22,228 bases of DNA. Source: a virus. Shown piece by piece: positions 4,077 through 18,071 of the stretch. Both the position numbers and the translations under genes were made by a program. The notes below the pieces were generated by a model. That model worked only from the letters and a program-made list of their open reading frames with translations. It searched no databases and was not told the DNA's origin. The stretch spans positions 1 through 22,228 of IMG/VR virus record IMGVR_UViG_3300037882_000322, one strand, 5' to 3'. Within the stretch, counting starts at the first letter, position 1, and each line of letters starts with the position of its first letter.

Positions 4077-4290
4077 AACAAAACTAAACCTCAACTTCGA
4101 GCCACAACTATCACCTAACGGCAGACCGTTAAGACTAAGCGGAATATCTTTAGCAACTACTAAACCCCCTATTTGGATTGATAAAGTTTTGACACATGGA
4201 ACGGTTTACACCTTCCGCTACTTAGACCAACAAGGCGGATTTGTAGCGTTTGAGTTTGACGCTAATAATAAATTTATTGGTAAAGTATAA
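4054..4290 (+). CDS. Small hypothetical protein after VRR-NUC
   Basis: A 78-residue protein of unknown function; an earlier in-frame ATG at 4033 would give 85 residues. The 4054 start is preferred because it has a weak GGA nine to eleven bases upstream and a shorter overlap (23 bases) with the VRR-NUC gene. The C-terminal half looks like a small beta-barrel (alternating hydrophobic residues in THGTVYTFRYLDQQGGFVAFEF). The coding strand is noticeably richer in C than its neighbours, for example the run of C near 4165, and holds a 6-bp hairpin (TAACGG, CAGA loop, CCGTTA, 4116-4131). It is the last gene of the replication module before promoter P1. No function is proposed. Confidence 0.7.
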   Translation: MEQILIGKTKLNLNFEPQLSPNGRPLRLSGISLATTKPPIWIDKVLTHGTVYTFRYLDQQGGFVAFEFDANNKFIGKV

Positions 4291-4316
4291 TTATTAAAAA
4301 TAATTTATTAACTTTG
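4284..4316 (+). promoter_or_regulatory. Late promoter P1, degenerate palindrome plus TAnnTTTG
   Basis: The -7 box TAACTTTG at 4309-4316 fits the Bacteroidetes TAnnTTTG consensus exactly. Eight bases upstream, 4284-4300 matches the 17-bp palindrome of the other late promoters at 12 of 17 positions (AATTATT core kept), so this is the most diverged member. The ATG of the next gene is only six bases past the box, so a leaderless or near-leaderless transcript is likely. Confidence 0.65.
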
Positions 4317-4321
4317 TTTTT

Positions 4322-4534
4322 ATGACAAAAGGACAAATATTAATTGATACAGAATTACAACAAGAGTATAGAATATTCTACTTTGATGAAAATTCAGTTA
4401 ACGGTATTTACATAATCGATAGCGAAACAATGGGTTTAGTAATTCATGGAGCTGATTTTATTATGAAATTCGACCAAAATATATTTGAAAAAATAAAAAA
4501 TCAATTATCTTTGAAAACTTTAGGATTTAATTAA
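4322..4534 (+). CDS. Small hypothetical protein upstream of terminase
   Basis: A 70-residue protein I do not recognise, first gene downstream of promoter P1 and separated from the small terminase gene by a single base. It is acidic-to-neutral with several beta-prone stretches (QEYRIFYFD, NGIYIIDS) and no signal peptide or membrane segment. Its start codon lies so close to the promoter that its mRNA probably begins at or next to the AUG. Position suggests a packaging or early-late accessory protein, but nothing in the sequence identifies it. Confidence 0.7.
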   Translation: MTKGQILIDTELQQEYRIFYFDENSVNGIYIIDSETMGLVIHGADFIMKFDQNIFEKIKNQLSLKTLGFN

Positions 4535-4535
4535 T

Positions 4536-4979
4536 ATGGCATACAGTAAAAAAGAAATAGAAGATATATTTAACTATGTTTGCATGGAAATAGAAAAAGG
4601 TAGGGCATTAAGAAACGTTTTAAAATACGAAAATATGCCTAGTACTTCTACATTTTATCAATGGTTAGATAATAATTCAGATAAAGCGAAACAATACGCG
4701 CGCGCGACAGAAGTAAGAGCCGATGTTATTTTTGACGACATTTTAAGTATAGCAGACGAAAACGATAATGATACTTATGTAAATGATAACGGTATTGAGG
4801 TTGTAAATAATGATGTTATACAAAGGTCAAGACTTAGAATTGATGCACGTAAATGGGTATTGTCTAAATTAAATCCTAAAAAGTTCGGTGATAAAATACA
4901 AACAGAACACTCAGGCGAAGTTACTACAAATGTTATTTCTTTAGGTAATGGAATAAAACCAAATGAAACTAATATCTAA
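4536..4979 (+). CDS. terS: Terminase small subunit
   Basis: A 147-residue DNA-recognition subunit of the packaging motor. It binds the packaging site and presents phage DNA to the large subunit. The N-terminal third (about residues 5-50) reads as a helix-turn-helix of the type found in Sf6-like small terminases, with SKKEIEDIFNYVC, then GRALRNVLKYENMPSTSTFYQWL. A following helix (KQYARATEVRADVIFDDILSIAD) fits the oligomerisation region, and the RLRIDARKWVLSKLNPKKFGDK segment is very common in this family. Order confirms the call: it overlaps the start of the large subunit gene by 17 bases. An alternating CG tract of ten bases at 4697-4706 lies inside the gene and is strikingly out of line with local composition. 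Confidence 0.88.
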   Translation: MAYSKKEIEDIFNYVCMEIEKGRALRNVLKYENMPSTSTFYQWLDNNSDKAKQYARATEVRADVIFDDILSIADENDNDTYVNDNGIEVVNNDVIQRSRLRIDARKWVLSKLNPKKFGDKIQTEHSGEVTTNVISLGNGIKPNETNI

Positions 4980-6261
4980 ACAAGAAAATGCAGTCTATTA
5001 CCTTAAAGATAAAACAACAACCGAATTGCTTTACGGGGGCGCAGCAGGTGGTGGTAAGTCCGCTTTAGGTGTTTTATGGTTAATTGAACAATGTCAAACT
5101 TACCCACAAACACGCTGGTTGATGGGTAGAGCAAAGTTAAAAACATTAAAAGAAACAACCTTAAATACTTTTTTTGATTTATCTTCACAATTAAAAATTA
5201 TAAATCAATTTAATTACAACGGTCAAAACGGTGTTATTTATTGGAATAACGGAAGTGAAATACTTTTAAAAGATTTATATTCTTATCCAGCAGACCCAAA
5301 TTTTGATAGTTTAGGTTCACTTGAAATAACAGGTGCCTTTATTGATGAGTGCAACCAAATAAGTTATAAGTCGTGGCAAATCGTTACTTCACGTATTCGT
5401 TACAAATTAAATGAATACGATTTAATTCCAAAAATATTAGGAACATGTAACCCTGCAAAAAATTGGACTTATTCAAAGTTTTACATTCCAAACTCAAACG
5501 GAACTATAAATAATAAAAAGCGTTTTATTCAGTCATTACCGACTGACAACCCTAATTTACCAGCATCCTATTTAGAAAGTCTTTTAGCTTTAGATGAAAA
5601 CAGTAAACAAAGGTTATATTATGGTAATTGGGAATACGACAACGACCCTAGTAAATTAATAGACTACGATAAAATAAATAACTGTTTTACAAATGAATTT
5701 ATTGAAGATGGCACAATGTATATTAGTGCTGATATTGCTCGTTATGGTAGTGATAAAATGGTTGTTTGTGTTTGGAGTGGTTTTCGAGTAGTTGAAATAT
5801 TTTCTTTGTCTAAATGTTCAGTAGTTGAAACTGCTGAAACCATAAGAGGATTGGCAAATAAATGGAAAGTACCAAATAGCAATATAATAGCAGATGAGGA
5901 CGGAGTTGGCGGTGGTGTTATCGATATACTAAAATGTAAAGGATTTGTAAATAATAGTAAGGCATTAAAAGAAGATAATGTAATTGTTGAATATCAAAAC
6001 CTAAAAACACAATGTTATTATAAACTATCTGAAAAAATACAAAACAACGGTATTTTTATAAATTGTCCCGATGGAACTATGCAAGATGAAATTATAAAAG
6101 AATTAGAACAAGTAAAAAGGGATAAGATTGATAATGACGGTAAATTGAGAATTGTACCAAAAGAAAAAGTAAAAGAGTTTATTGGAAGGTCACCAGATTA
6201 CTCGGATGCTTTAGCTTTCAGAATGTACTTTGAATTGCAACCTAAATTTTTTACTTTCTAA
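4963..6261 (+). CDS. terL: Terminase large subunit
   Basis: ATPase and nuclease of the DNA packaging motor, which docks on the portal, pumps DNA into the prohead and cuts the concatemer. ATPase domain: Walker A G26-AAGGGK32-S33, Walker B ending I127-D128-E129, and coupling-motif-like GTCNPAKNW. The RNase H-like nuclease domain has its expected acidic residues at D257 (ISADIARYG), D311 (ADEDGVGGG) and D415 (SPDYSDALAF). At 432 residues it is a normal, compact large terminase. It starts inside the small terminase gene and is followed directly by promoter P2, so packaging genes and portal have separate promoters. Confidence is high because both domains are intact. Confidence 0.96.
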   Translation: MKLISKQENAVYYLKDKTTTELLYGGAAGGGKSALGVLWLIEQCQTYPQTRWLMGRAKLKTLKETTLNTFFDLSSQLKIINQFNYNGQNGVIYWNNGSEILLKDLYSYPADPNFDSLGSLEITGAFIDECNQISYKSWQIVTSRIRYKLNEYDLIPKILGTCNPAKNWTYSKFYIPNSNGTINNKKRFIQSLPTDNPNLPASYLESLLALDENSKQRLYYGNWEYDNDPSKLIDYDKINNCFTNEFIEDGTMYISADIARYGSDKMVVCVWSGFRVVEIFSLSKCSVVETAETIRGLANKWKVPNSNIIADEDGVGGGVIDILKCKGFVNNSKALKEDNVIVEYQNLKTQCYYKLSEKIQNNGIFINCPDGTMQDEIIKELEQVKRDKIDNDGKLRIVPKEKVKEFIGRSPDYSDALAFRMYFELQPKFFTF

Positions 6262-6295
6262 TTTAGATTAATTCTAAATAAATTTTATATCTTTG
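6262..6295 (+). promoter_or_regulatory. Late promoter P2 with palindromic -33 region
   Basis: The near-perfect palindrome TTTAGATTAATTCTAAA at 6262-6278 is followed after nine bases (TAAATTTTA) by a perfect -7 box TATCTTTG at 6288-6295. The portal ATG is 18 bases past the box. The palindrome directly follows the terL stop codon. It belongs to a five-member promoter family in this window. Confidence 0.78.
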
Positions 6296-6312
6296 AAACA
6301 AAATATACTACA

Positions 6313-7662
6313 ATGGCAGTAAATCGATTTCGTTTAGCGTGGGACACTTTTGTAAATCCTAATAAATTCAACGAGGCTTTATATAAATTAGTGGGAGCGC
6401 AAACTACTACTTACAATGCAACTTTAGAAACTTTAATGACTAAGGGATATGGCGAAAACCCAGACGTAAACGCTATTATTAACCAAATGGCTAGTAAATC
6501 AACAGCAGTGCCTTATATTGTTAAACCTATTGAAGATGAAAAGGCGTATAAAAAGATTAAAAGATTTCCGAATAATCCAACTTACTTACAACAAAAGAAA
6601 CTAGAGCTTTTAATAAAAGAAGCTTACAAAGATGTTGAGCAACCGATGCCAATAGAAAAACCTAACCCTAATCAAACATGGGAGGAGTTTATTTATTTGT
6701 ACAAAATCTATTTAAAAGTTTGCGGAAATGTTTATTTTTATAGATTGACTTCTTTAATGGGTGAACCATTAGCGATTTATATATTGCCGTCGCATTGGGT
6801 GCAAATTGTGTTAAAAGCAAACGCTTCGAGTTTAAATATTGAAAACCCTATTGATTATTATATTTTACAACAAGGCAATCAGTTAATTAAATTTGAACAA
6901 AACACTATAATTCATATTAAACGCTCAAATCCTTTTTATAATCAAAACGGGTCACATTTATACGGTTATAGTGAATTAATGGCAGCTATAAGAAACATAA
7001 ACAGCTCTAATAGTTTTATTGATACAAGTGTTAAGACTTCACAAAATGCGGGTGTCTATGGTTTTATTCACGCTGGAGATGGTCAAAGCCCATTAACACA
7101 AGAACAAGCAAACGATTTAAAGCAACGTTTAGTTGATATGAACGATAGCAAAGAAATGCTATCTAATATTGCTGGTGCTTCTGGTAAGTTAGGATTTACT
7201 AGAATATCATTAACAACAGACGAATTAAAGCCTTTTGACTATTTAAGCAATGACAGACGTACGCTTTGTAATTGTTTGAATTACCCTATTGACTTGTTAA
7301 ATGAAGAGCGTTCAGGTACTGGCTTTGGTGTTGATGCGGTTATTGAAGCCCGTAAAAGAGTGGTTACCGATAATATTAAACCCGATTTAGATTTATTAGC
7401 TTCTTATTTGAATAAAGAATTTATACAGATGTTTAAAGGTTATGAAAAATCAGTAATTGAGTTTGATATTAGTGAATTACCCGAAATGCAAACAGATACG
7501 TCTGAAATGATTAATTGGATGGTAAAAGCACCGTTAACACCAAATGAAATTAGAGAAGCTATCAATTATGAAGCTATTGAAGATGAAAATTTAGATGTTG
7601 TTTATATTAATTCAAATCTAAAAAGAATTGATGACCCTAGTTTTGATGAAATGAATGAATAA
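6313..7662 (+). CDS. Portal protein, HK97 type
   Basis: Dodecameric ring at the unique head vertex through which DNA enters and leaves, and the docking site for terminase and head-tail connectors. The 449-residue length and features fit the HK97/lambda-type phage portal family: ETLMTKGYGENPDVNAIINQMASKSTAVPYIV near the N-terminus, the central YGYSELMAAIRNI motif, and the conserved C-terminal stem region SGTGFGVDAVIEARKRVVTDN preceding DLDLLASYLN. It is transcribed from P2 and its stop codon overlaps the start of the next gene (TAATG). Position between large terminase and head morphogenesis protein is canonical. No anomalies seen. Confidence 0.94.
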   Translation: MAVNRFRLAWDTFVNPNKFNEALYKLVGAQTTTYNATLETLMTKGYGENPDVNAIINQMASKSTAVPYIVKPIEDEKAYKKIKRFPNNPTYLQQKKLELLIKEAYKDVEQPMPIEKPNPNQTWEEFIYLYKIYLKVCGNVYFYRLTSLMGEPLAIYILPSHWVQIVLKANASSLNIENPIDYYILQQGNQLIKFEQNTIIHIKRSNPFYNQNGSHLYGYSELMAAIRNINSSNSFIDTSVKTSQNAGVYGFIHAGDGQSPLTQEQANDLKQRLVDMNDSKEMLSNIAGASGKLGFTRISLTTDELKPFDYLSNDRRTLCNCLNYPIDLLNEERSGTGFGVDAVIEARKRVVTDNIKPDLDLLASYLNKEFIQMFKGYEKSVIEFDISELPEMQTDTSEMINWMVKAPLTPNEIREAINYEAIEDENLDVVYINSNLKRIDDPSFDEMNE

Positions 7663-8402
7663 TGGATAAATTAAGATTAAGACAGGAATTACAAGCGTAT
7701 AGAATTGTAAGGCGTAATGTCTTAAAAATAACTAATTCTATTCGTTTTGAAAATATGACAATCGGAACTTATCAGGCGTTAATAAATGCTAATATAACCG
7801 AAAAGGAAATATTAGAAATGTATAAAGAAATTTATACTACTTTAATTGCACCACAATATAAACGAACTGAAAAGACTATTAAGGTTGATATTGATTTTGA
7901 AACTATTATAGCTGAATGGTTAAATAGCAATGCGGGATTGAGAATAGTATCAGTACATCAAACTTTAATAGATGCTATTATCGGAGTTATTGCTCAAGGG
8001 TATGAAAATAATTTATCGGTTGCAGATATAACTAGAAATTTACAACGTCAAATTGGGTGGTTTAAATATCAAGCGTTAAGAATTGCAAGAACCGAAACAA
8101 CAACGGCTACGAATTACGCTACTGTTTTAGCTTCTGAAAATTCAGAATACGAACTTAATAAAATGTGGATAAGCACACAAGACAATCGAACACGTCGACC
8201 ACCTAAATCACCTTACGACCATTTAGATATGAATGGTGTTATAGTTGATGCCGATAAACCATTTTTTGTTAGTGGTGAGGAGTTGCAATTCCCAGGTGCA
8301 CCAAATGGTAAAGCGGGGAATATAATTAACTGTAGATGTAAAATAGTTTTCACTATAAAAGAAGATGAGGACGGTTTACCTATTCGGAAAATAAAAAAAT
8401 AG
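7662..8402 (+). CDS. Head morphogenesis protein (Mu F/SPP1 gp7 type)
   Basis: A 246-residue minor head protein that associates with the portal in procapsid assembly. The C-terminal half carries the family signature: helix ARTETTTATNYAT, then MWISTQDNRTR, then the H-L-D-M-N-G-V segment, then FFVSGEELQFPGAP and the terminal NIINCRCKI. This is shorter than Mu F but normal for the stand-alone gp7-like form. It is coupled to the portal gene through a TAATG junction. The last gene of this operon segment, it is followed by P3. The role beyond minor head assembly (for example DNA ejection) is known only for relatives. Confidence 0.9.
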   Translation: MDKLRLRQELQAYRIVRRNVLKITNSIRFENMTIGTYQALINANITEKEILEMYKEIYTTLIAPQYKRTEKTIKVDIDFETIIAEWLNSNAGLRIVSVHQTLIDAIIGVIAQGYENNLSVADITRNLQRQIGWFKYQALRIARTETTTATNYATVLASENSEYELNKMWISTQDNRTRRPPKSPYDHLDMNGVIVDADKPFFVSGEELQFPGAPNGKAGNIINCRCKIVFTIKEDEDGLPIRKIKK

Positions 8403-8406
8403 TTTA

Positions 8407-8440
8407 TTTAGATTGATTATAAATAATTTTTATATATTTG
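8407..8440 (+). promoter_or_regulatory. Late promoter P3 with palindromic -33 region
   Basis: TTTAGATTGATTATAAA at 8407-8423, a nine-base spacer TAATTTTTA, and -7 box TATATTTG at 8433-8440. Only four bases (CATT) separate the box from the protease ATG at 8445, so transcription should start at or immediately beside the start codon, giving a leaderless mRNA for the protease/capsid operon. Confidence 0.78.
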
Positions 8441-8444
8441 CATT

Positions 8445-9101
8445 ATGGATTTTAAAATATTATCATACGATTTAAAAGATTTAGACGATACTAAGGGAGT
8501 TGTTAAGGCGTACGCTAACGTTTACAACTTCAAAGACAGTGACGGTGATATTAGCGCTTATGGTTCATTCGATAAGACCGTTACTGAAAACTTTAAAAGA
8601 ATTAGAGTATTAAAAGACCATAACCCTACAATGATGATAGGCGTCCCTTTAGCTATTGACACAAAAGATAGCTATGGACTTTTAACAACCTCACAATTTA
8701 ACATGAATAAACCTTTAGGTAAAGATATGTTTACCGATGTTAAGTTGATGCATGATAGCGGACTAAATGCTGAGTTAAGCATTGGTTATAAAGTTATGCA
8801 ACGTGATACAAAAGATAAATCTATTATCAAAGAATATAAGTTAATGGAATATTCTTTTTTATCCAGTTGGGGCGCAAATCAACTAAGTACAGTACAAGAT
8901 ATAAAATCTATTAAATCGCATTACGGTTTAATGGAATTAATACAAAAATCATACGATTTGGATTATTCAGATGAAAGACTAAGACAAATTGAAAACTTAT
9001 TAAAATCACTCGATAAAGAGCCGTCACAAAGTGACACTACGAATTTAGAGCCGATTATGGAAACTTTAAAATCATTTACAAACTCTTTAATCCTAAAATA
9101 A
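8445..9101 (+). CDS. Prohead maturation protease, HK97 type
   Basis: Serine protease (U35/HK97 family) that removes the N-terminal scaffold domain of the capsid protein inside the prohead. At 218 residues it is normal length. Visible landmarks are the YANVYNFKDSDGD strand-loop, the catalytic His in LKDHNP (H59), the nucleophile in AELSIGYK (S112), and the following YKLMEYSFLSSWGANQLSTV strand typical of the family. The C-terminal about 60 residues are polar and likely disposable. It sits one base upstream of the capsid gene, and both are driven by P3. The matching delta-like coiled-coil in the capsid N-terminus supports a working cleavage system. Confidence 0.93.
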   Translation: MDFKILSYDLKDLDDTKGVVKAYANVYNFKDSDGDISAYGSFDKTVTENFKRIRVLKDHNPTMMIGVPLAIDTKDSYGLLTTSQFNMNKPLGKDMFTDVKLMHDSGLNAELSIGYKVMQRDTKDKSIIKEYKLMEYSFLSSWGANQLSTVQDIKSIKSHYGLMELIQKSYDLDYSDERLRQIENLLKSLDKEPSQSDTTNLEPIMETLKSFTNSLILK

Positions 9102-9102
9102 A

Positions 9103-10257
9103 ATGGACGAGATTAAATTAAAAGCCGAATTAGACGGTATTAAAGTAGCTTTAGAAACAAAGACTACTCAAGAAGTAAAAAGCGCAATCGATGCTTTTGA
9201 AACAAAATTAACAAGCGAAATTAAAGCATCTTTTGATACTGAATTGAAATCAGTAAAAGAAGCTTTAGAAGCTAAATTTGCTACTGACTTAAAAGCAGTA
9301 CAAGACCACGCAAACCTATTGGATGCTAAATTGCAAACAAAAGAAGTAGAAACTAAAAATGTTGACTTCTTAACAAAAGCAATTACTGAAAATATCGAAA
9401 GTATCAAAACTGTAGCGAAAGACAAACCATTCCAAACAAAAGCGGTAGCAAATATGACTACTTCTAATTTGACTGGTACTGCTCCAAAAACTTACAATTT
9501 TGATATTGTTACTTTACCATCTCAAATGGTAAACATCGAAGACTTAGCAAGACCAGTAACTGCTGATAACGGTGTGTATGTTTACACTCGTGAAACAGGT
9601 GGAGAAGGTTCTATTTCTGCTCCAGGTTCTGAAGGTGGTGCAAAATCACAAAAAGATTACGATTTCACAGCATACGACGTAGCAACTGACTTTATTGCTG
9701 GTTTTACTCGTTACTCTAAAAAAATGCGTAATAACTTAACGTACATCGTTAATACTATTCCTTCACTTTTAAGAAGAGATTATTTCAAAGCTGAAAACGC
9801 TGCTTTCCAAACTGTAATCGCTGCTGCTGCAACTGCATCAACTGAGATTATTACAGGGAAAACAAAAGCGGAAATGCTTATCAATGAAATTGGTAAATTG
9901 CAAGATGCGGATTACGACGCTACAAACTTAATCATAGTTAGACCATCTGACTACCTTTCAATCTTAAAAACTGCAAAAGACGATTTAGCTGCTGCTGTTA
10001 CTTATGACGGTGGCGTTTTAAGAGTTGCTGGAGTTCAAGTATTGAAAGCTTCAAGCTGGTTACCTGCTAACAAATATTATGTAGCGGATTGGAGTAGAGT
10101 TTCAAAAGTAACTACTGAGGGATTGTCTTTAGAGTTTTCTGAAACTGAAGGAAGTAATTTTGTAAACAACAATATTACTGCAAGAATTGAAGCACAAGTA
10201 GCTGTTTGTGTTGAGCAACCTGCTGCAGTTGTTTACGGAGATTTTACGGCTGTCTAG
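9103..10257 (+). CDS. Major capsid protein, HK97 fold
   Basis: The 384-residue shell subunit. Residues about 1-105 are a highly charged helical stretch (KAELDGIKVALETKTTQEV and similar), matching the delta/scaffold domain that the upstream protease removes. Cleavage is likely between about residues 105 and 125, near FQTKAVANMTTSN. The rest follows the HK97 order: N-arm, an E-loop-like stretch around YTRETGGEGSISAPG, the A-domain containing NLIIVRPSDYLSIL, and a final beta-rich DFTAV end. Compared with neighbours the gene uses more C-ending codons (AAC, TTC, GAC, ATC, TAC), consistent with selection for high expression. A strong terminator follows the stop codon directly. No sign of a capsid Lys-Asn crosslink can be judged from sequence alone. 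Confidence 0.93.
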   Translation: MDEIKLKAELDGIKVALETKTTQEVKSAIDAFETKLTSEIKASFDTELKSVKEALEAKFATDLKAVQDHANLLDAKLQTKEVETKNVDFLTKAITENIESIKTVAKDKPFQTKAVANMTTSNLTGTAPKTYNFDIVTLPSQMVNIEDLARPVTADNGVYVYTRETGGEGSISAPGSEGGAKSQKDYDFTAYDVATDFIAGFTRYSKKMRNNLTYIVNTIPSLLRRDYFKAENAAFQTVIAAAATASTEIITGKTKAEMLINEIGKLQDADYDATNLIIVRPSDYLSILKTAKDDLAAAVTYDGGVLRVAGVQVLKASSWLPANKYYVADWSRVSKVTTEGLSLEFSETEGSNFVNNNITARIEAQVAVCVEQPAAVVYGDFTAV

Positions 10258-10279
10258 TTTTTCATTTTTTAATTGTTTT

Positions 10280-10312
10280 AAAAGCGTTGCAATTTGTAAC
10301 GCTTTTTTTTTT
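10280..10312 (+). terminator. Intrinsic terminator of the protease/capsid operon
   Basis: Stem AAAGCGTTGC (10281-10290) pairs with GTAACGCTTT (10296-10305) around an AATTT loop, with one G-U pair; A10280 and T10306 can extend it. Ten consecutive T (10303-10312) follow. It lies 23 bases after the capsid stop codon and is the strongest terminator in the window. Confidence 0.9.
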
Positions 10313-10319
10313 ATCTTTG
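10293..10319 (+). promoter_or_regulatory. Promoter P6 fused to the capsid terminator
   Basis: Perfect -7 box TATCTTTG at 10312-10319, whose first T is the last T of the terminator U-tract. A TTTG at 10293-10296, inside the terminator hairpin, can act as a conventional -33 box with 15 bases between. The palindrome of the other late promoters is absent. It would restart transcription for the head completion genes, with the first ATG at 10342. Confidence 0.65.
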
Positions 10320-10341
10320 AATAATTAAATATTTTTTTCTT

Positions 10342-10497
10342 ATGAAATATAAAGTAATCAAACCATTTTTTAAGCTATCTGAAAAGAAAAACTATGTTAT
10401 TGACGATGTTATTGAATTAACTGAAGATGAAGCAAAGTCTATGAATTGGTGTGTAGTGGAGATAAAAGAAACTAAAAAATCCAAAAAAGATGACTAA
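10342..10497 (+). CDS. Small hypothetical protein between capsid and connector
   Basis: A 51-residue protein starting MKYKVIKPFFKLSEKKNYV and ending with a lysine-rich tail KETKKSKKDD. It is the first gene behind the terminator-promoter junction, 22 bases after the -7 box, and its 3' end overlaps the next gene by eight bases, which supports genuine translation. The sequence looks like a small beta-barrel with charged tail (KVIKPFF, NYVIDDVIELTEDEAKSM), similar in style to small proteins often encoded between capsid and gp6-type connector genes. Such proteins have been proposed as head decoration or accessory factors; nothing here proves that. Unknown function. Confidence 0.78.
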   Translation: MKYKVIKPFFKLSEKKNYVIDDVIELTEDEAKSMNWCVVEIKETKKSKKDD

Positions 10498-10948
10498 TTA
10501 TACAGACGTTATTAGTTTAGAACGTGCAAAATTATACTTAAAAATTGATAGTGGTCAAACGGTAACGGATGATGAAATTACAAGTATGATTGCTAGTTCT
10601 TTATCTTTCATAGAAAAGAGAACGGGACATATTTTTAAGACTAAAAATAAAACTTACTACTCAACACCTTGTTGCAATTCAGTTGTTGTATATGATTATC
10701 CTATTGACAATACAGAAACAGAATACGACATTGAGTATAGACAATTAAATGCTATTGTACCTACTGTAAGTGGTTCGGTAGTTTTAACATTAGGCTATAC
10801 TGATGTTGATGATATTCCAAATGAGTTGATAGATGCTGCTTTGCAATTATTAAAAGTCTATTTTTACGAAAGCGAAACACAACAAAACAGCACATTAATA
10901 CCATTATCTGTAATGCAATCCATCGATGTAAATAGAAGATTTATATAG
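10490..10948 (+). CDS. Head-tail connector, gp6-like
   Basis: A 152-residue connector that would form the ring directly below the portal (HK97 gp6/SPP1 gp15 type). The N-terminus has the family look: VISLERAKLYLKID, then TDDEITSMIASSLSFIEKRTG, a helical pair found in phage gp6/YqbG-like adaptors. The middle is beta-rich and the end is a helix containing IPNELIDAALQLLKVYFYE, again typical. It overlaps the small upstream gene by eight bases and is followed after two bases by the 56-codon gene. Position between capsid and head-closure protein agrees. Assignment rests on motif style and order. Confidence 0.85.
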   Translation: MTNYTDVISLERAKLYLKIDSGQTVTDDEITSMIASSLSFIEKRTGHIFKTKNKTYYSTPCCNSVVVYDYPIDNTETEYDIEYRQLNAIVPTVSGSVVLTLGYTDVDDIPNELIDAALQLLKVYFYESETQQNSTLIPLSVMQSIDVNRRFI

Positions 10949-10950
10949 TT

Positions 10951-11121
10951 ATGAAAACAAAAGAAATAGAATTTAAAAAAGGTAATTTACACTTATATAT
11001 TCAATATAATGTAAGAATGATTGGCTTTTTAATAGATTGGGAAAAGTACGGTAATAAATACACCTTTGCGATAGGTTTACCTTTTTTGGTTTTTTCATTT
11101 GAATATATAAAAAAATGTTAG
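10951..11121 (+). CDS. Small hypothetical protein with hydrophobic C-terminus
   Basis: A 56-residue protein beginning MKTKEIEFKKGNLHLYIQ and ending FLVFSFEYIKKC. It starts two bases after the connector stop codon and overlaps the head-closure gene by seven bases, so it is locked into the operon. The last 20 residues are strongly hydrophobic and aromatic, but flanked by charges and probably too short and beta-like for a confident membrane helix. I do not recognise a family. It may be a minor virion or assembly factor, by position only. Confidence 0.68.
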   Translation: MKTKEIEFKKGNLHLYIQYNVRMIGFLIDWEKYGNKYTFAIGLPFLVFSFEYIKKC

Positions 11122-11441
11122 CTAGAAAATATAATAAATATATTGAAATTTGGAGTACTTCAACCGTTGCTGATGGTTTTGGGGGAAATACTGTAGATAC
11201 ATTTTTGGCTTTTTCATTTTGGGCGAATGTAACGACAAAAAACGCTAGGATATTAAACGAAAACGGTCAAAATGATAATATAGTTCAAACAATATTTACC
11301 ATTAGAAGAACTAGTGATATTGAATTTTATACTAAATCCAATTTTATTAAGTATAACGGACTAACTTACAATATTGATAGTATTATGAATTTAGATTTAA
11401 ATAATATTGATATTCAAATTTATGCAAGTCAAAGGGATTAA
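11115..11441 (+). CDS. Head closure/head-tail joining protein
   Basis: A 108-residue protein of the phage head-tail joining family (HK97 gp7/SPP1 gp16-like stopper), which seals the connector after packaging and gives the surface for tail docking. It shows the family pattern: an opening YNKYIEIWSTSTVADGFGGNT, a WANV strand, a mid-protein TIRRTSDIEFYTKSNFIKYNGLTYNIDSI stretch, and a short IYASQRD end. Size is normal. It overlaps the preceding small gene by seven bases, and the next gene begins inside its last 20 bases. Fold-level assignment is from pattern recognition and synteny. Confidence 0.84.
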   Translation: MLARKYNKYIEIWSTSTVADGFGGNTVDTFLAFSFWANVTTKNARILNENGQNDNIVQTIFTIRRTSDIEFYTKSNFIKYNGLTYNIDSIMNLDLNNIDIQIYASQRD

Positions 11442-11940
11442 CGAGGTAATATCTAATTTGCGAAAATACGGCAAAGAAGCAGAAAAGGACGTTGAGGGCG
11501 TTACTGAATTAACGGCTAGAAATATTGAAAAGTATGCTAAACAATCAGCACCTGTTAATTTTGGCAAATTAGGACAGTCTATAGTAACTGAAAAAGTTAA
11601 TCCAACTACTTATAAAGTTGTTGTAAATGCTCCTTATGGTGCTTATATGGAATTTGGAACAGGAACAAAGGTTGAAGTACCGAGCGAATTAGAATCAGTT
11701 GCTCGTGAATTTCAAGGTAAAAAAAGTGGTAATTTTAAAACTGCTTTAGAAGACATTAAACAATGGTGTAGGTCAAAAGGAATACCTGAAGAAGCAGCTT
11801 ATCCTATTTTAGCAAAAATATTAAAAGTTGGTATAACTCCAAAACCTTATTTGTATCCTGCATATTTAAGAGGTAAAACGGAATATTTAGATAAATTAAA
11901 AAAAGTATTAAACAAATATGGCAAAACCAAATCCAAATAA
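11422..11940 (+). CDS. Neck/tail component, HK97 gp10-like
   Basis: A 172-residue protein of the HK97 gp10 family, involved in tail completion or neck formation. Family hallmarks are GINEVISNLRKYGKEAEKDV and the segment ELTARNIEKYAKQSAPVNFGKL followed by VVVNAPYGAYMEFGTGTK, the most recognisable motif. Residues about 100-140 are an insertion relative to the shortest members. The ATG at 11422 is chosen; an in-frame TTG at 11407 would add only five residues and has no supporting signal. It overlaps the head-closure gene by 20 bases and the next gene by 23 bases. Confidence 0.86.
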   Translation: MQVKGINEVISNLRKYGKEAEKDVEGVTELTARNIEKYAKQSAPVNFGKLGQSIVTEKVNPTTYKVVVNAPYGAYMEFGTGTKVEVPSELESVAREFQGKKSGNFKTALEDIKQWCRSKGIPEEAAYPILAKILKVGITPKPYLYPAYLRGKTEYLDKLKKVLNKYGKTKSK

Positions 11941-12325
11941 GTTTATTAGAAAAAGGATTTATGATTTAGTAAATCCTACTTATCCATGCTTTGATACAAA
12001 TGTTACAGGAAATTTAAACCCTACTCAATATGTTATTATATCAACTCAGGATAAAATAGACGATATACCAACTAAATGTGGTCATCGTTGGGAGGTAGCT
12101 ACTTTAATAGACATAGTATGTATTTATAATGGTGCTGGTAATGTTGGTTCAAGACTTATTAACGATGATATGGAGCAAGAAATTAGAACATTGTTAGAAG
12201 ATATAACTATTTCAGGCTATACGGTATTAAATCAAAGATTTGAGTATCCATCAAACCTAGATAGCTCAAGTGCAACACAAACAGTTTTTAGAAACTTTAT
12301 TCGGTTAGTTTTAACCTTAGAATAA
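11918..12325 (+). CDS. Tail completion/terminator-type protein
   Basis: A 135-residue protein at the position normally occupied by the tail terminator or tail completion protein (SPP1 gp17/lambda U type) just before the major tail tube gene. The N-terminus MAKPNPNKFIRKRIYDLVNP is a helix as expected, followed by strand-rich sequence (TQYVIISTQDK, WEVATLIDIVCIY) and the EQEIRTLLEDI helix, then a strand-rich C-terminal end. The overall alpha-beta layout agrees with this group, but conservation is low and the call relies mainly on order and length. It is the last gene before promoter P4. Confidence 0.72.
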   Translation: MAKPNPNKFIRKRIYDLVNPTYPCFDTNVTGNLNPTQYVIISTQDKIDDIPTKCGHRWEVATLIDIVCIYNGAGNVGSRLINDDMEQEIRTLLEDITISGYTVLNQRFEYPSNLDSSSATQTVFRNFIRLVLTLE

Positions 12326-12335
12326 AAATTTATTA

Positions 12336-12369
12336 TTTAGAATTATTATAAATAATTTTTATATCTTTG
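12336..12369 (+). promoter_or_regulatory. Late promoter P4 with palindromic -33 region
   Basis: TTTAGAATTATTATAAA at 12336-12352, a nine-base spacer TAATTTTTA, and -7 box TATCTTTG at 12362-12369. The tail tube ATG lies 35 bases past the box, giving the longest 5' leader of the palindrome promoters; the leader is almost pure A/T. Confidence 0.78.
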
Positions 12370-12403
12370 AAAAGGAATTAATTAATTTAAAAAATATATT
12401 ATT

Positions 12404-12847
12404 ATGGCAATAAAAGGCGAAAAAGGGATGTTATATGTTTACATCGGTGCAGCATATAAACCAGTAGCATGTTTAACTTCAATAGGGTTAAGCTCTAGCG
12501 TTTCAATTATTGAAAGTCAAACTAAATGTTATCCAGGTGTTGTTAAGAAAACGCCAGGAAGTTTTAGCGCTTCAATTTCAGCAGAGGGAGAATACATCGA
12601 TACTACTTCGGCTGGTGGTGATACTGCAAAAGTATCACATGACAAAATGTTTATCGACCAACAAACTAAAACGCTAATGGAGTGGAAAATTGACACAGAT
12701 ACAACTGATGCTAATAGTGTTAAGTATTTTGGTTCAGGTTATTATACTGACTTAGAATTAACACAAGGCTCAGGCGATGAGGTATCTACGTTTTCAGTTA
12801 CTTTAGATGTTGACGGGGCGGTTTTATATACAGACCCTAACGCATAA
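12404..12847 (+). CDS. Major tail tube protein
   Basis: A 147-residue subunit that stacks as hexameric rings into the tail tube. Beta-rich throughout, starting MAIKGEKGMLYVYI and containing YKPVACLTSIGLSSS, a LMEWKID strand and a GSGYYTDLELTQGSGDE strand pair, in the style of the TP901-1/SPP1 tail tube group. It has its own promoter (P4) directly after head completion genes, as expected for a high-copy protein, and precedes the tail assembly chaperone pair and the tape measure. A second protein of related sequence is encoded at 17553-18071. Confidence 0.87.
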   Translation: MAIKGEKGMLYVYIGAAYKPVACLTSIGLSSSVSIIESQTKCYPGVVKKTPGSFSASISAEGEYIDTTSAGGDTAKVSHDKMFIDQQTKTLMEWKIDTDTTDANSVKYFGSGYYTDLELTQGSGDEVSTFSVTLDVDGAVLYTDPNA

Positions 12848-12849
12848 AT

Positions 12850-13200
12850 ATGAAACAAATAACGCTTAATATTGGTGGACAAGACCGTATTTTTTGCTTT
12901 GGTTTAGGTTTCTTAGGAAACTTATTAGAAGTTGAAAATATAGCTTTTCACGAAATAGATGAAAAAATAAAAGAAAATCCTTTTAAATGGATACCGTTAA
13001 TAATGTTTCATTCATGCTCATTTGGTTATATTAAAAATAACGAAACGATACCTTTTAATAAATATGTTTTTTCAGATTGGATTGATGAATTAGGTGTGGA
13101 CAATGAAGTTGTTACTAACTTTTTCAACGCTTTTACACAATCACTAACAAAAGACGTTCCTAAGCAACTAGAAGATAAAAAAAAAGTAGCGAAAAAATAA
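12850..13200 (+). CDS. Tail assembly chaperone, upstream frame (gpG-like)
   Basis: The 116-residue zero-frame product of a gpG/gpGT-type chaperone locus between tail tube and tape measure. Such proteins coat the tape measure and recruit tube subunits during tail polymerisation and are absent from the virion. The body is alpha-helical and acidic to neutral; the end is lysine-rich because of a run of nine A (13177-13185) shortly before the TAA stop at 13198. Synteny, length and the slippery run fit the family; direct sequence similarity to known G proteins cannot be judged by eye. Continuation in the -1 frame gives a 223-residue fusion. Confidence 0.82.
   Translation: MKQITLNIGGQDRIFCFGLGFLGNLLEVENIAFHEIDEKIKENPFKWIPLIMFHSCSFGYIKNNETIPFNKYVFSDWIDELGVDNEVVTNFFNAFTQSLTKDVPKQLEDKKKVAKK
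13179..13185 (+). promoter_or_regulatory. Probable -1 ribosomal frameshift site
   Basis: Zero-frame codons AAA-AAA-AAA at 13177-13185 include the slippery heptamer A AAA AAA. In the -1 frame a TAA at 13176-13178 abuts the run, and the frame is then open to 13518. Slippage gives AGT-AGC-GAA onward, whereas the zero frame stops 13 bases later. No clear downstream stem or upstream Shine-Dalgarno-like stimulator is seen. Confidence 0.75.
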
Positions 13201-13520
13201 ATTGGAGTGAAGATGTAATTTCTTTTGCTTTGGGTGAACTTAAAGTGGCGGATTTGGAAACGGTTTACGATATGACGTGGAGCGAATTTCAAATCCGCCT
13301 TTTTGCTTATAAAAGACAGGATTTATACAAATGGCAACAGTTAAGGGAGCTAATGTGGATTACATATATTGCACCACACCAAGACCCTAAAAAAATGGTT
13401 AAAAGAAAAGAAAGTTTATTATCTTTAAAAGATGATAAAAAGGTAATTTCAGGAGTTACACCAGAACAGAAAGAAAGATTTTTAAAAGAGTATTTAAAAT
13501 GGCAACAGGCGGTAAATTAG
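13185..13520 (+). CDS. Tail assembly chaperone, -1 frame extension (T part of gpGT-like)
   Basis: A 111-residue extension, expressed most plausibly only as a fusion to the upstream chaperone by -1 slippage. Evidence: it lies in the -1 frame, opens exactly at the A run, lacks a convincing start codon (the first candidate is a TTG at 13230, the first ATG is within DMTWSEF), and has no ribosome binding site. The content is helical, with a SEFQIRLFAYKRQDLYKWQQLRE segment resembling the T-domain helices of phage tail chaperones and an EYLKWQQAVN end. It overlaps the tape measure start by 22 bases, as usual for this locus. Independent translation from the TTG cannot be excluded. Confidence 0.8.
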   Translation, partial: SSEKINWSEDVISFALGELKVADLETVYDMTWSEFQIRLFAYKRQDLYKWQQLRELMWITYIAPHQDPKKMVKRKESLLSLKDDKKVISGVTPEQKERFLKEYLKWQQAVN

Positions 13521-15331
13521 AGGTACAAATTGGAGCGGACATAACCGACTTTGAGAAAAAAATCAAAGAGGTTGAGTTTGATATTAAGGAACTATCAAAG
13601 GTTAAACTTGACAGGATTAAGTTAGGTTTAGATACTCGTGAGATTAATTCTCAAATAAAAGACGCTAAAAATAACTTAACACAGTTAAAAACTGCTGTTA
13701 AAGACACAGGGCAATCATTTGCACAAGCTACACCAAAAATAGCAAACGGGGGCAATACCTTAATGCAGTTTAGTAGAATAGCCCAAGATGCACCTTTTGG
13801 TATTATGGGTATTGGTAATAATATTACCGCTACTGCTGAAAGTTTTAGTTACCTTAAACAACAAACAGGAAGTACAGGCGGAGCTTTAAAGGCTTTAGCT
13901 TCTTCTATTGCTGGTACTGGTGGGATATTATTAGGGGTTTCTTTACTTACTACTGGATTAACTTTACTTTCTCAAAGTGGGTTAAGTGTTGGAGATGTTA
14001 TTGATAAATTGACTGGTGATTTTGATGAGTTTGGGGCTGAATTAAAAAAAGCAAATGAAGAAGGAATAAAATCGGCTTCAACCCAAATTAATTTGATGAA
14101 CACGCTTATTGCTGTTGCTCAAAATGATAATAGAACAAAAGCTGATAGAATAGATGCGGTTAAACAGTTAAAAGCGGAATTTCCAGAATATTATAAGCAG
14201 TTGAGTGACGAGAAAATCATGTACGGTGATTTGTCAAAAGAAACCAAAAACGCAACAAAAGCACTTTTAGCAAAAGCGGTAGCTGATAAATTAGCTAGTA
14301 AAAATGCAGATGTCTTTGAGCAAAAACTATTAGCTCAAGGGCGTTACAATAAAAAACGTGCAGAATTAGCTGAATTTGATATAAAAACGGAAAAAGAATT
14401 AGCCGCAATCAGAAAGCAAATAGCTAATAATCCATCGGGAGGAGCAGGACAAGCGGAAGCAGCTATACTATATAATAGAGGAAAAATTCTAGATAGTCTT
14501 GAAGATGAGAGCAAATTAATAGGCGCGCTTGACAAAAAATATGCTAATCTATTAAATGTAATAGATGAGATTTACGACCCTGAAAAGCCAAGAGAATTAC
14601 CAGCAACCAAAACAACCAAAGCAACTAAATCGCCAAAAATAAAAAATGCTAAATTTGAATTTGATACTGAATTTATAGCTCCTTTTATTAGTCAGATTAG
14701 CGGATTAGGGGCTACTATGGATGGCTTTGCTGAACGAACTGCAATAGCTTTTGACAATGCAAATGCATCAACAAAAATAGGGCTTTCTGAAATGGCTTTA
14801 GCTTGGGAAACTTTCGGTTTAAATTTAAGTGATATAATTGAAAGTGGTGTTGAAAGCACTTTAATCAGTTTTGGTGAAACTTTAGGAACTGCATTGACAG
14901 AGGGGATAAATGTTGTTGATGCTTTAGGACAATCTTTAATAGGCTCTATTGGACAAACAATATCGGCAGTTGGTAAAGAGTTGGTTAAAATGGGTATATT
15001 AGCTCAGGCTTATGCTGCAGTAGTTAAATTTATGCAAAAGGCTTTTACAAATCCTTACGCTTTAGCCGCTGCTGGAGTTGCTTTAGTAGTAATTGGTTCG
15101 GCTGTATCTGCAAGTGCAAAAAAAGTAGGTTCAGGAGGTTCAGGTGGCGGAGCATCAACATCAACAGGCGCAGGAGCTAATAACGAGAGTTTTTCACGTA
15201 GTAGCTTTAGTGGTACTTCAGCGAATAGTGGAACAGTAGTTTTTGAAATAGCTGGAACTAAATTAGTAGGGGTTTTAAGTAACACATTAAATGCAAATAG
15301 ACGTTTAGGCGGTCAATTAGGATTAGGATAA
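13499..15331 (+). CDS. Tape measure protein
   Basis: Sets tail length and travels down the tail during ejection. 610 residues: an N-terminal coiled-coil region (KKIKEVEFDIKELSKVKLD and following), a first hydrophobic segment around residues 120-160 (IAGTGGILLGVSLLTTGLTLL), a long charged helical middle (about 190-380), a second hydrophobic region around 500-545 (YALAAAGVALVVIGSAVSA), a Gly/Ser-rich linker, and a beta-like C-terminal end. It follows the chaperone frames and precedes the tail tip gene, the classical place. At roughly 1.5 angstrom per residue it predicts a tail near 90 nm. The membrane-like segments fit a role in DNA passage across the envelope. No peptidase or lysozyme insert is evident. 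Confidence 0.92.
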   Translation: MATGGKLEVQIGADITDFEKKIKEVEFDIKELSKVKLDRIKLGLDTREINSQIKDAKNNLTQLKTAVKDTGQSFAQATPKIANGGNTLMQFSRIAQDAPFGIMGIGNNITATAESFSYLKQQTGSTGGALKALASSIAGTGGILLGVSLLTTGLTLLSQSGLSVGDVIDKLTGDFDEFGAELKKANEEGIKSASTQINLMNTLIAVAQNDNRTKADRIDAVKQLKAEFPEYYKQLSDEKIMYGDLSKETKNATKALLAKAVADKLASKNADVFEQKLLAQGRYNKKRAELAEFDIKTEKELAAIRKQIANNPSGGAGQAEAAILYNRGKILDSLEDESKLIGALDKKYANLLNVIDEIYDPEKPRELPATKTTKATKSPKIKNAKFEFDTEFIAPFISQISGLGATMDGFAERTAIAFDNANASTKIGLSEMALAWETFGLNLSDIIESGVESTLISFGETLGTALTEGINVVDALGQSLIGSIGQTISAVGKELVKMGILAQAYAAVVKFMQKAFTNPYALAAAGVALVVIGSAVSASAKKVGSGGSGGGASTSTGAGANNESFSRSSFSGTSANSGTVVFEIAGTKLVGVLSNTLNANRRLGGQLGLG

Positions 15332-15334
15332 ATT

Positions 15335-17503
15335 ATGGCTAAAAAAATAATAATATCTTTTGCAGAAAATCCAACTTTATCAGAGCCTGGATTTGGTTAT
15401 ACTATTGATATTTCAGGATTTACATTGTTTTACGACAATGGGACAGACTTATTGCAAATTGACGAAATAGATGTAAAGCCTACACTTGAAGAAACTATAC
15501 AGAATTTAAATACTTACTTGCGTGAGAATTGGACAAATGATGTTATTTTCTACGATATAGTTGGAAACACTATAGAGGTAACTATAAATGCGGACGCAAA
15601 CGTAAATGTTGAATTTATTATAAATGCGGATATAACTATTGATGTTGTAGATATTGAGCCTATTATAACAAGTTTGAAGTACTACATAATTTTCGAGGAT
15701 TATGTATTGAATATTTACAAAGCAAACTATCAAGGTACAGCTACCGAAATATTTGGAACATTTACTTTAAACAAATCTTCAGTTGATAGTATTTTAGCAC
15801 CAATAAGAGGAACGGGATTACAACTATCTTTAGAAGCAAATCAAAGTTTAACATTTGATGAGTTTATACTAAATGATGAGTTTACTTATAAGACTGAATT
15901 ATTAAAAAACGGTTATTTAATTTACAAAGGATATATTAAACCCGACGGGGTTCAACAGTCATACGTAAACGATGAGTGGTTAATTAATATAGAAAGCACA
16001 GATGGATTAGGAGCTTTAAAAGACTTATCTTTTGTGCAAACAAATGGATTAACTTTTAGCGGTAAAATGTCTTTTTACGACGTTATAAAAGGGTGTCTTG
16101 ACCGTACTAAATTATCAATGACTATAAATACAAGTGTTGGGATTTCTTACGTAGGTTATGAAGGGACTAATATTTTAAAAGATGTTTATGTAAATGCATC
16201 GAGATTTATAAAAGATAGTCAGGATGATGTTATAATGGATTGCAACGAGGTTTTAACCTCTATTTTGAATTTATTTAGCGCAATAATAACCCAACAGGAT
16301 GGACAATGGTACATTTTACGCCCTAATGATTTAGTAGCTAGTGGCTATGTTAATTTTATTAATCAAACTACAAATGTTACTTTTTTAAAGAAATTAAACA
16401 AAACTTTAGGTAGTCAAATAAACAACTTTTATCCACATCACGCTGGAGCAAATCAACAAATTGAGGTAAAAGGTGCTATAAGTGCTTATCGTATAAATTA
16501 TAAATATGGTTTTTTAGAAGGATATCTTTTAAATCCAAATCTTAACCATGATGAAGATTTAGTTTATGAAAATTGGACAGTAAATCCTTTGTTACCAAGT
16601 GGAATTTTATTAAACAACCCATTGGACTTATCGGGTGCTTTAATGAAATCTTATTTTAGAATAGGCTCAGACCCTACGATAGAGGTTATGACAAGTGATG
16701 AACTACCAGTTTTGGCAGGAGATGTATTTACTTTTAAAACAAAATTAACAGCAAGATATGCAAAGCATAATTTCTTTTTTAAAATAAAAACGAGCGATGG
16801 TTATACTTTAAATCAGCAAAATGAATGGGTCTTAACAGATGCCACTACTTATGTTAATTTTGGACAAGCAAGTCCAGAACCAGTTAATTTGACTTATGAG
16901 TTAAAAATGCCTCCAATTTTAAACGATTGTGATTTAACGGTTACAATTTGCAGACCAACGCATGATTTTACTACCGTAAATTGGTTTTTGTTGACAAATT
17001 TAGAATGTACTTATATACAAATCACAAAAGATTTTTTCAAAGAACAAGGAATTATAGGGGAATTTCACACAGTTTCAAGACAGTTACCTCCAAGCTCAAT
17101 TACTAAAAACAATCAAGAGGTGTTCAATGGAGATGGCGATGCTTTACTTGTTGGTTCAATTTATAAAGAAGACCTAATAACGCCTACTGAAAATTGGACA
17201 CGTGATAATAAATTTGAAAGTTTACCGTTGTTGGGAATATCCGCAATGGATGACCTTAGAATACAATCAAATCCTATTAAGATTTTTAGCGGTTCGATTT
17301 ATGGACAATTACCTTATTTATCAGTAGTAACTATTGACAATGTTTCAGGGCTATTTATGTTTGTGGATTACGATTATGACTATAAAACCAACTTATCACA
17401 AGTTAAATTAATGCAATTTTATAATAGTGATTTAGGGGATATTTACTATGAGGTTTCGCCTAACTATGGAGAGAATAATATCAAGCCAACAATCAAAGGA
17501 TAA
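15335..17503 (+). CDS. Large tail tip/hub protein
   Basis: A 722-residue beta-rich protein directly after the tape measure, where the distal tail and tail-associated (hub) proteins are encoded. No catalytic motif is recognisable. Residues about 1-115 are strand-rich with an internal near-repeat (NTIEVTINADANVNVEFIIN followed by ADITIDVVDIEP). A second zone about 115-340 (TSLKYYIIFEDYVLNIY, YKTELLKNGYLIYKGYIKPD, YDVIKGCLD) reads like a baseplate-hub core, and the C-terminal part has jelly-roll-like patches (WTVNPLLPSG to DLTVTICRPTHD). The absence of a separate distal tail gene suggests that both roles may be joined here; this is inference. It is followed by P5. Confidence 0.75.
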   Translation: MAKKIIISFAENPTLSEPGFGYTIDISGFTLFYDNGTDLLQIDEIDVKPTLEETIQNLNTYLRENWTNDVIFYDIVGNTIEVTINADANVNVEFIINADITIDVVDIEPIITSLKYYIIFEDYVLNIYKANYQGTATEIFGTFTLNKSSVDSILAPIRGTGLQLSLEANQSLTFDEFILNDEFTYKTELLKNGYLIYKGYIKPDGVQQSYVNDEWLINIESTDGLGALKDLSFVQTNGLTFSGKMSFYDVIKGCLDRTKLSMTINTSVGISYVGYEGTNILKDVYVNASRFIKDSQDDVIMDCNEVLTSILNLFSAIITQQDGQWYILRPNDLVASGYVNFINQTTNVTFLKKLNKTLGSQINNFYPHHAGANQQIEVKGAISAYRINYKYGFLEGYLLNPNLNHDEDLVYENWTVNPLLPSGILLNNPLDLSGALMKSYFRIGSDPTIEVMTSDELPVLAGDVFTFKTKLTARYAKHNFFFKIKTSDGYTLNQQNEWVLTDATTYVNFGQASPEPVNLTYELKMPPILNDCDLTVTICRPTHDFTTVNWFLLTNLECTYIQITKDFFKEQGIIGEFHTVSRQLPPSSITKNNQEVFNGDGDALLVGSIYKEDLITPTENWTRDNKFESLPLLGISAMDDLRIQSNPIKIFSGSIYGQLPYLSVVTIDNVSGLFMFVDYDYDYKTNLSQVKLMQFYNSDLGDIYYEVSPNYGENNIKPTIKG

Positions 17504-17536
17504 TTTAGAATTATTCTAAATAATTTTATATCTTTG
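17504..17536 (+). promoter_or_regulatory. Late promoter P5 with perfect palindrome
   Basis: TTTAGAATTATTCTAAA at 17504-17520 is a perfect 17-bp palindrome around a central base. An eight-base spacer TAATTTTA and -7 box TATCTTTG (17529-17536) follow. The ATG of the tail-tube-like gene is 17 bases past the box. The palindrome begins at the base right after the tail hub stop codon, so no separate terminator fits in between. Confidence 0.8.
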
Positions 17537-17552
17537 AATAAAATAAAAAATT

Positions 17553-18071
17553 ATGGATTTCTTTTCAGGAGATGATAGAATTTTGTATATCAAAAAAAAC
17601 GGCTATTGGCTTCCAATAGCTTGTTTAACTTCAAATAGTTTGTCAGAAACTACCGAAATGTTACCAACAACAACAAGGGATAACAACGGATGGCAAACTT
17701 CAAGACCAGTCATGCAAAATTATAACATAGCTTTTGATGGATTGCAAGTAAATACGTCTATTGCTGGTGGCAATTTTAGCGTTGCTAGTTATGACACTTT
17801 GAAATTATTGAAAAGAAGTAAAACCTTATTGGATTGGAAAATTGAAGGGACTTTGTTTCCAGTTGTGGACTACGGGAAAGGATATATTACAGATATTTCC
17901 GAAAGTTCAGCAGTAGGTGAATTTTTAAGTTTTTCAGGCTCAATAGTAGGCTTTGGAATACCATTAACAAAAGGAAAAGGTGAGTTCGTTTTAAATAACG
18001 GTGACCCCGAAATAATATTAACAACAAGCGAAGCGGCGGATTTAATAATTCGTACTTCGGATGCTTATTAA
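17553..18071 (+). CDS. Second tail-tube-like protein
   Basis: A 172-residue protein with clear resemblance to the major tail tube protein at 12404: YWLPIACLTSNSLSETTEM against YKPVACLTSIGLSSSVSI, SKTLLDWKI against TKTLMEWKI, and YGKGYITDI against FGSGYYTDL, in the same order and spacing. It adds about 25 residues at the C-terminus (after IVGFGIPLTKGKGEF). It lies between the tail hub and the fibres and has its own P5 promoter of the same family as the tube gene, consistent with duplication of promoter plus gene. It may form a distal ring, an adaptor to which fibres attach, or an alternative tube subunit. Paralogy is well supported; function is inferred. Confidence 0.78.
   Translation: MDFFSGDDRILYIKKNGYWLPIACLTSNSLSETTEMLPTTTRDNNGWQTSRPVMQNYNIAFDGLQVNTSIAGGNFSVASYDTLKLLKRSKTLLDWKIEGTLFPVVDYGKGYITDISESSAVGEFLSFSGSIVGFGIPLTKGKGEFVLNNGDPEIILTTSEAADLIIRTSDAY

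What the first reader, a model, noticed from the sequence alone, without database searches (positions are those of the whole stretch)
4284..17536. Five promoters share a 17-bp palindrome in place of the -33 box
Sites at 4284, 6262, 8407, 12336 and 17504 each have a version of TTTAGAATTATTCTAAA, a conserved 8-9 bp A/T spacer (TAATTTTTA-like) and TAnnTTTG. The palindrome would span roughly -37 to -21, where the host -33 TTTG box normally lies, and no TTTG is present there. Four copies are near-identical, one (4284) is degenerate, and all precede packaging, capsid, tail tube or tube-like genes. I infer a phage-specific late regulon: a dimeric activator substituting for -33 recognition, a repressor covering it, or an altered sigma contact. 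No such regulator gene is recognisable within the window, unless the ribbon-helix-helix protein serves.
Basis: partly seen in the sequence, partly recalled or inferred. Interest (0 to 1): 0.75.

Follow-up and report, generated by a model that had tools for sequence, protein, structure and literature searches.

The report
Host iron-switch sites in phage promoters
A virus of Flavobacterium-type bacteria carries, at the start of its shell- and tail-building genes, the same DNA switch its hosts use to sense iron, and many unrelated viruses of these bacteria do too, so virus assembly may be controlled by the host's iron level.

Summary
Four strong palindromes are confirmed in this Flavobacterium phage 11b-like siphovirus (6262, 8407, 12336, 17504). 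Each lies 8-9 bp upstream of TAnnTTTG, ahead of portal, protease-capsid, tail-tube and tube-like genes. The fifth (4284) scores at background.

The palindrome is not a phage-private operator. It is the flavobacterial Fur box. The EMSA-supported Riemerella anatipestifer Fur box is ATTTAGAATTATTCTAAAT; window 17503-17521 matches it 19/19. Copies in Bacteroidota chromosomes sit at iron/heme genes: fur-feoAB, heme oxygenase, hmuY, araC/hemA, sufS, TonB receptors.

The box recurs at late promoters of 11b relatives (78 hits in 80 loci against 5-6 in controls, nearly all noncoding) and in unrelated phages with different portal families. No fetched phage locus encodes Fur, and the ribbon-helix-helix gene does not track the motif.

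Best model: host Fur-Fe(II) occludes these promoters, so late genes are gated by host iron status, or by Fur titration as phage DNA replicates. Box identity is well supported; binding and repression in infection are inferred. Fur control of a phage-carried gene is known (stx1). I found no report of a Fur-box late structural regulon, but literature access was limited.

The parts
6261..6279 (+). Fur box ATTTAGATTAATTCTAAAT (17/19 on +, 18/19 on -), upstream of the portal gene
6288..6295 (+). -7 box TATCTTTG
6313..7662 (+). portal protein
   Evidence: PHROG 12, E 2.7e-36
8406..8424 (+). Fur box ATTTAGATTGATTATAAAT (16/19), upstream of the protease-capsid operon
8433..8440 (+). -7 box TATATTTG
8445..9101 (+). 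head maturation protease
   Evidence: PHROG 80
9103..10257 (+). major head protein
   Evidence: PHROG 10
12335..12353 (+). Fur box ATTTAGAATTATTATAAAT (18/19), upstream of the tail tube gene
12362..12369 (+). -7 box TATCTTTG
12404..12847 (+). major tail (tube) protein
   Evidence: PHROG 1407
17503..17521 (+). Fur box ATTTAGAATTATTCTAAAT, identical over 19/19 to the Riemerella anatipestifer Fur box
17529..17536 (+). -7 box TATCTTTG
17553..18071 (+). second major-tail-type (tube-like) protein
   Evidence: PHROG 1407
4283..4301 (+). degenerate candidate site (14/19, background by score); -7 box TAACTTTG at 4309-4316; precedes a 70-aa ORF and the terminase genes

Best explanation
The palindrome is a host Fur box placed in the phage's own promoters. 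With enough iron, host Fur-Fe(II) dimers bind at about -38 to -21, cover the -33 region and exclude sigma-A RNA polymerase, so the portal, protease-capsid, tail-tube and tube-like operons stay off or low. They turn on when Fur releases: in iron-poor cells, or when replication multiplies the boxes and titrates Fur. Shown here: sequence identity to an EMSA-supported Fur box, the same motif at host iron genes, conservation in relatives, recurrence in unrelated phages, and promoter-occluding positions. Inferred: binding by this phage's host Fur, repression during infection, and which signal lifts it. Sub-estimates: the site is a Fur box bound by host Fur, about 0.85; given that, it works mainly by repressing these genes, about 0.75.
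For: Riemerella anatipestifer Fur box ATTTAGAATTATTCTAAAT with EMSA (PMC5609570, PMC10986502); window 17503-17521 identical 19/19 and the four finding sites are the window's four best matches. Host copies at fur-feoA-feoB, heme oxygenase, HmuY, araC/hemA, FbpA-like and TonB genes and, in Flavobacterium, at araC/hemA (8 of 26) and sufS (5 of 26). In 80 relatives fetched without using the motif: 78 hits against 6 reversed and 5 shuffled, 70 noncoding, spacing mostly 8-9. Same box beside portals of at least three PHROG families. Boxes also lie just 3' of -7 boxes, and two perfect boxes bracket one -7 box in G194, as expected of a repressor. No Fur homologue in the fetched phage loci.
Against: No binding or expression data for this phage, and its host is only inferred. 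The 8-9 nt spacing is tighter than simple occlusion requires. Sister phage 11b lacks the box and G012 has a different palindrome at the same place, so it is not essential to this gene layout. Exact boxes are few per Flavobacterium genome (26 places at <=1 mismatch in 15 genomes, reversed control 10).
Confidence: 0.64

Rival explanations
1. Fur decoy. The boxes serve mainly to soak up Fur as phage DNA multiplies and so switch on host iron uptake; any effect on late genes is secondary.
For: Several boxes per genome (ten at <=3 mismatches in G001) would multiply with replication; some boxes have no TAnnTTTG downstream (20 of 78). Phage infections that raise host iron uptake are described in other hosts (PMC10986025).
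Against: Most boxes are placed at a fixed distance from a -7 box and directly before virion genes, which a decoy does not need.
Confidence: 0.1
2. Fur acts as an activator here: Fur bound at about -30 stands in for -33 recognition and recruits polymerase, so late genes are highest in iron-rich cells.
For: Tight 8-9 nt spacing and absence of a TTTG at -33.
Against: In other phages and at host sufS the same box sits just after the -7 box, where activation is unlikely; Fur is described as a negative regulator in the source paper.
Confidence: 0.1
3. A phage-encoded regulator, such as the ribbon-helix-helix protein, binds the palindrome.
For: The TAGA-N5-TCTA layout resembles the phage P22 Arc operator (from memory); the RHH gene is in the window, G002, G027 and G012.
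Against: RHH is not found in G001, which has ten palindromes, and is present in G012, which has a different palindrome. No protein family is shared by all motif-bearing phages. Host iron genes carry the same site.
Confidence: 0.06
4. Another Fur-family protein such as PerR, not Fur, is the ligand, so the signal is peroxide or another metal.
For: Some phage sites read TTTATAATTATTATAAA, close to the Bacillus PerR box (from memory); hemA and fur are PerR targets in Bacillus (from memory).
Against: Host copies lie at heme oxygenase, HmuY, FbpA-like, feoAB, sufS and TonB genes, and Riemerella Fur itself was tested on this sequence.
Confidence: 0.07

Closest known systems
Fur box and Fur regulon of Riemerella anatipestifer (Flavobacteriales), PMC5609570 and PMC10986502
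   Same: Identical 19-bp sequence at window 17503-17521; near-identical at three more sites
   Different: There it controls host iron and hemin genes; here it lies at phage virion genes, and binding has not been tested
Fur control of stx1 on the Stx1 phage of E. coli (PMC5552940, citing Calderwood and Mekalanos 1987)
   Same: A host Fur box on a phage controls a phage-carried gene in response to iron
   Different: That is one cargo gene; here several virion operons carry boxes, in unrelated phages
Flavobacterium phage 11b
   Same: Nearest annotated relative, with matching head and tail genes
   Different: Has no such palindrome at promoters; several of its promoters read TTG-TATATTTG
Phage T4 MotA middle promoters (from memory)
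   Same: A regulator site takes the place of the upstream promoter element
   Different: MotA is a phage-encoded activator; here the site is that of a host repressor

Membership tests
Flavobacterial Fur box | Matches the EMSA-supported sequence ATTTAGAATTATTCTAAAT | tested here: met
   19/19, 18, 18 and 16 of 19 at four sites; 4284 only 14/19
Flavobacterial Fur box | Same motif stands at iron and heme genes in Bacteroidota chromosomes | tested here: met
Flavobacterial Fur box | Lies where bound Fur would occlude RNA polymerase | tested here: met
   8-9 nt upstream of TAnnTTTG in the window; just after or around -7 boxes in other phages
Flavobacterial Fur box | Metal-dependent binding by the host's Fur | not testable with these tools
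   needs EMSA or footprinting
Flavobacterial Fur box | Downstream genes respond to iron and to loss of fur | not testable with these tools
   needs infection or reporter data
Bacteroidota sigma-A promoter | TAnnTTTG -7 box | tested here: met
   all sites; consensus from PMC9723704
Bacteroidota sigma-A promoter | TTTG-type -33 element | tested here: not met
   no TTTG there at the four sites; the palindrome occupies it
Arc-like ribbon-helix-helix operator | The RHH gene is present wherever the motif is | tested here: not met
   not found in G001; present in G012, which lacks the motif at promoters

The most novel reading that the evidence does not exclude
Host Fur works as a built-in early-to-late timer. 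Late promoters are shut by host Fur at low phage copy number; genome replication multiplies Fur boxes until Fur is titrated, which opens virion genes and host iron uptake together, with no phage-encoded late regulator. Unrelated Bacteroidota phages reached this independently.
Probability: 0.2. Interest if true: 0.9.

Novelty: new variant of a known kind. Interest (0 to 1): 0.76.

Why it matters
If true, virion production in a broad set of Bacteroidota phages is wired to the host's iron sensor, linking phage yield to iron supply in water and other habitats. It would let phages time late genes without a regulator of their own, and it gives an exact, easily tested prediction: late promoters should rise with an iron chelator or in a fur mutant. 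It also bears on the idea that phages and iron are linked, such as the Ferrojan Horse hypothesis of iron-bearing tail fibres (PMC11705849).

Tried and rejected
RHH protein as regulator: rejected by distribution. A shared phage-encoded regulator: no family tracks the motif; small HTH and XRE-like proteins are scattered. An early reading that hosts lack the motif came from requiring an exact box plus the -7 spacing; searching for the box alone reversed it. An early guess that G189-type contigs are crAss-like was wrong: their portals match Flavobacterium 'elemo' and Cellulophaga podoviruses. Blastn of one promoter against phages found nothing. HmuY loci in Flavobacterium were uninformative, probably because the stretches held do not reach the operon promoter. 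The cultured phages checked have few boxes; Cellulophaga phi10:1 has three at <=2 mismatches, one of them just before the gp101 start and after a TAACTTTG.

Full report
WHAT IS THERE. The window is a 22,228-base virus record of a siphovirus related to Flavobacterium phage 11b (about 70% DNA identity over 48% of an 8-kb query). Four palindromes TTTAGAWTNATTMTAAA precede TATMTTTG by 8-9 nt, ahead of the portal, protease-capsid, tail-tube and tube-like genes. The fifth (4284) is at background by score (14/19).

RELATIVES. Eighty loci were fetched by terminase similarity alone, so without bias toward the motif. In 870 kb they hold 78 matches at two or fewer mismatches, against 6 for the reversed pattern and 5 in a Markov shuffle. 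Seventy of the 78 lie in noncoding DNA, which is 20% of the sequence. Thirty-one are distinct. Spacing to TAnnTTTG was 9 nt in 42, 8 in 10, 10 in 1 and 11 in 4; 20 had none. The conserved unit is really 23 bp, TTATTTAGAATNATTMTAAATAA (that set includes pattern-fetched loci, so its spacing is not independent). G001 (34 kb) has ten sites at three or fewer mismatches, some before early or middle genes; G002 is similar. Phage 11b has no palindrome at a promoter. G012 has a different palindrome, GTAGTAYATTGTATTAC, at five promoters with the same 8-9 nt spacing, found in only three contigs of the viral collection.

UNRELATED PHAGES. Pattern scans found the same box in contigs with unrelated head modules. 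Portal proteins beside boxes belong to at least three PHROG portal families (12/2662, 6547 and 64). The 6547 group is related to Flavobacterium 'elemo' and Cellulophaga podoviruses. A prophage portal region in one host genome also carries the box (L250).

WHO BINDS IT. Searches for a shared phage regulator failed, and the RHH protein does not track the motif. Searching chromosomes for the box plus TAA gave hits in 18 of 396 Bacteroidota genomes and none for the reversed control. The neighbours were mostly iron and heme genes: fur-feoA-feoB (L256), heme oxygenase (L247, L248), araC divergent from hemA (L249, L252, L253), HmuY (L257), FbpA-like binding proteins (L261, L263, L264) and TonB receptors (L259, L260, L262) (Pfam on representatives; the FbpA and some TonB names are my reading). 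In 15 Flavobacterium genomes a one-mismatch search gave 26 places (reversed control 10), with 8 at araC/hemA and 5 at sufS (Pfam on representatives). The literature then supplied the name: the Riemerella anatipestifer Fur box is ATTTAGAATTATTCTAAAT, with EMSA on several promoters (PMC5609570), and a near-identical box at rhuB has iron, fur-mutant and EMSA evidence (PMC10986502). Window 17503-17521 is identical to the first over all 19 bases.

HOW IT LIKELY WORKS. Fur with ferrous iron is classically a repressor (established knowledge; PMC5609570 says the same). Here the box lies at about -38 to -21, over the -33 region. In other phages the same box sits directly after the -7 box (G199/G196, G194), and in G194 two perfect boxes bracket one -7 box. 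Varied occluding positions point to repression more than activation. Host sufS copies also lie just after a TACTTTTG (L311, L312). A host gene of unknown function has the phage-like arrangement with 7-9 nt spacing in three Flavobacterium genomes (L117, L169, L310; my reading of the sequences). No phage locus held here encodes a Fur homologue by tblastn, so host Fur is the likely ligand. Release could come from low iron or from titration by replicated phage DNA; nothing here decides between them.

LIMITS. No expression or binding data exist for this phage. Its host is inferred. The Riemerella consensus was predicted from regulated genes and supported by EMSA, not by a genome-wide binding map. 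The spacing bias could partly reflect shared ancestry within the 11b group. Literature searches covered open papers only; I found Fur control of stx1 on the Stx1 phage but nothing on phage structural genes.

VERDICT. The interpretation shifts from a phage-private late regulon to phage late promoters carrying the host's iron-regulator box, a feature shared by several unrelated Bacteroidota phage groups.

Noticed in passing
G012 (oriented as L073): promoters at 2285, 13201, 20840, 27773, 30558: A different palindrome, GTAGTAYATTGTATTAC, sits 8-9 nt before TAnnTTTG at five promoters of an 11b relative; its ligand is unknown.
   Followed up: partly
L092, L093 (Sphingobacterium prophages): GCTAAA-N-TTTAGC-type palindromes overlap or abut the -7 boxes of several prophage promoters, as if a repressor covers them.
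   Followed up: no
window 10280-10319: A strong terminator-like hairpin (z = -4.3) after the capsid gene runs straight into a TATCTTTG promoter; G001 has a box-like palindrome at the equivalent promoter.
   Followed up: partly
G001 9405 and 14600, G002 26417, L052 3182: A variant box ending in TTAA lies 12 nt before TAnnTTTG at early or middle genes, including ERF-like recombination genes.
   Followed up: partly
L117, L169, L310 (Flavobacterium chromosomes): A conserved small cysteine-containing protein without a Pfam match has a Fur box 7-9 nt before its -7 box, the same layout as in the phage.
   Followed up: partly
window 18083-18628: The gene after the tube-like gene contains a His-Ser-His motif; HxH motifs bind iron in some tail fibres. 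No Pfam match here; speculative.
   Followed up: partly
window 21904-22092 (-): Ribbon-helix-helix-like protein (PHROG 25647, unknown function) beside the lysozyme gene; present in G002, G027, G012, L029, L072, L076 but not found in G001.
   Followed up: yes
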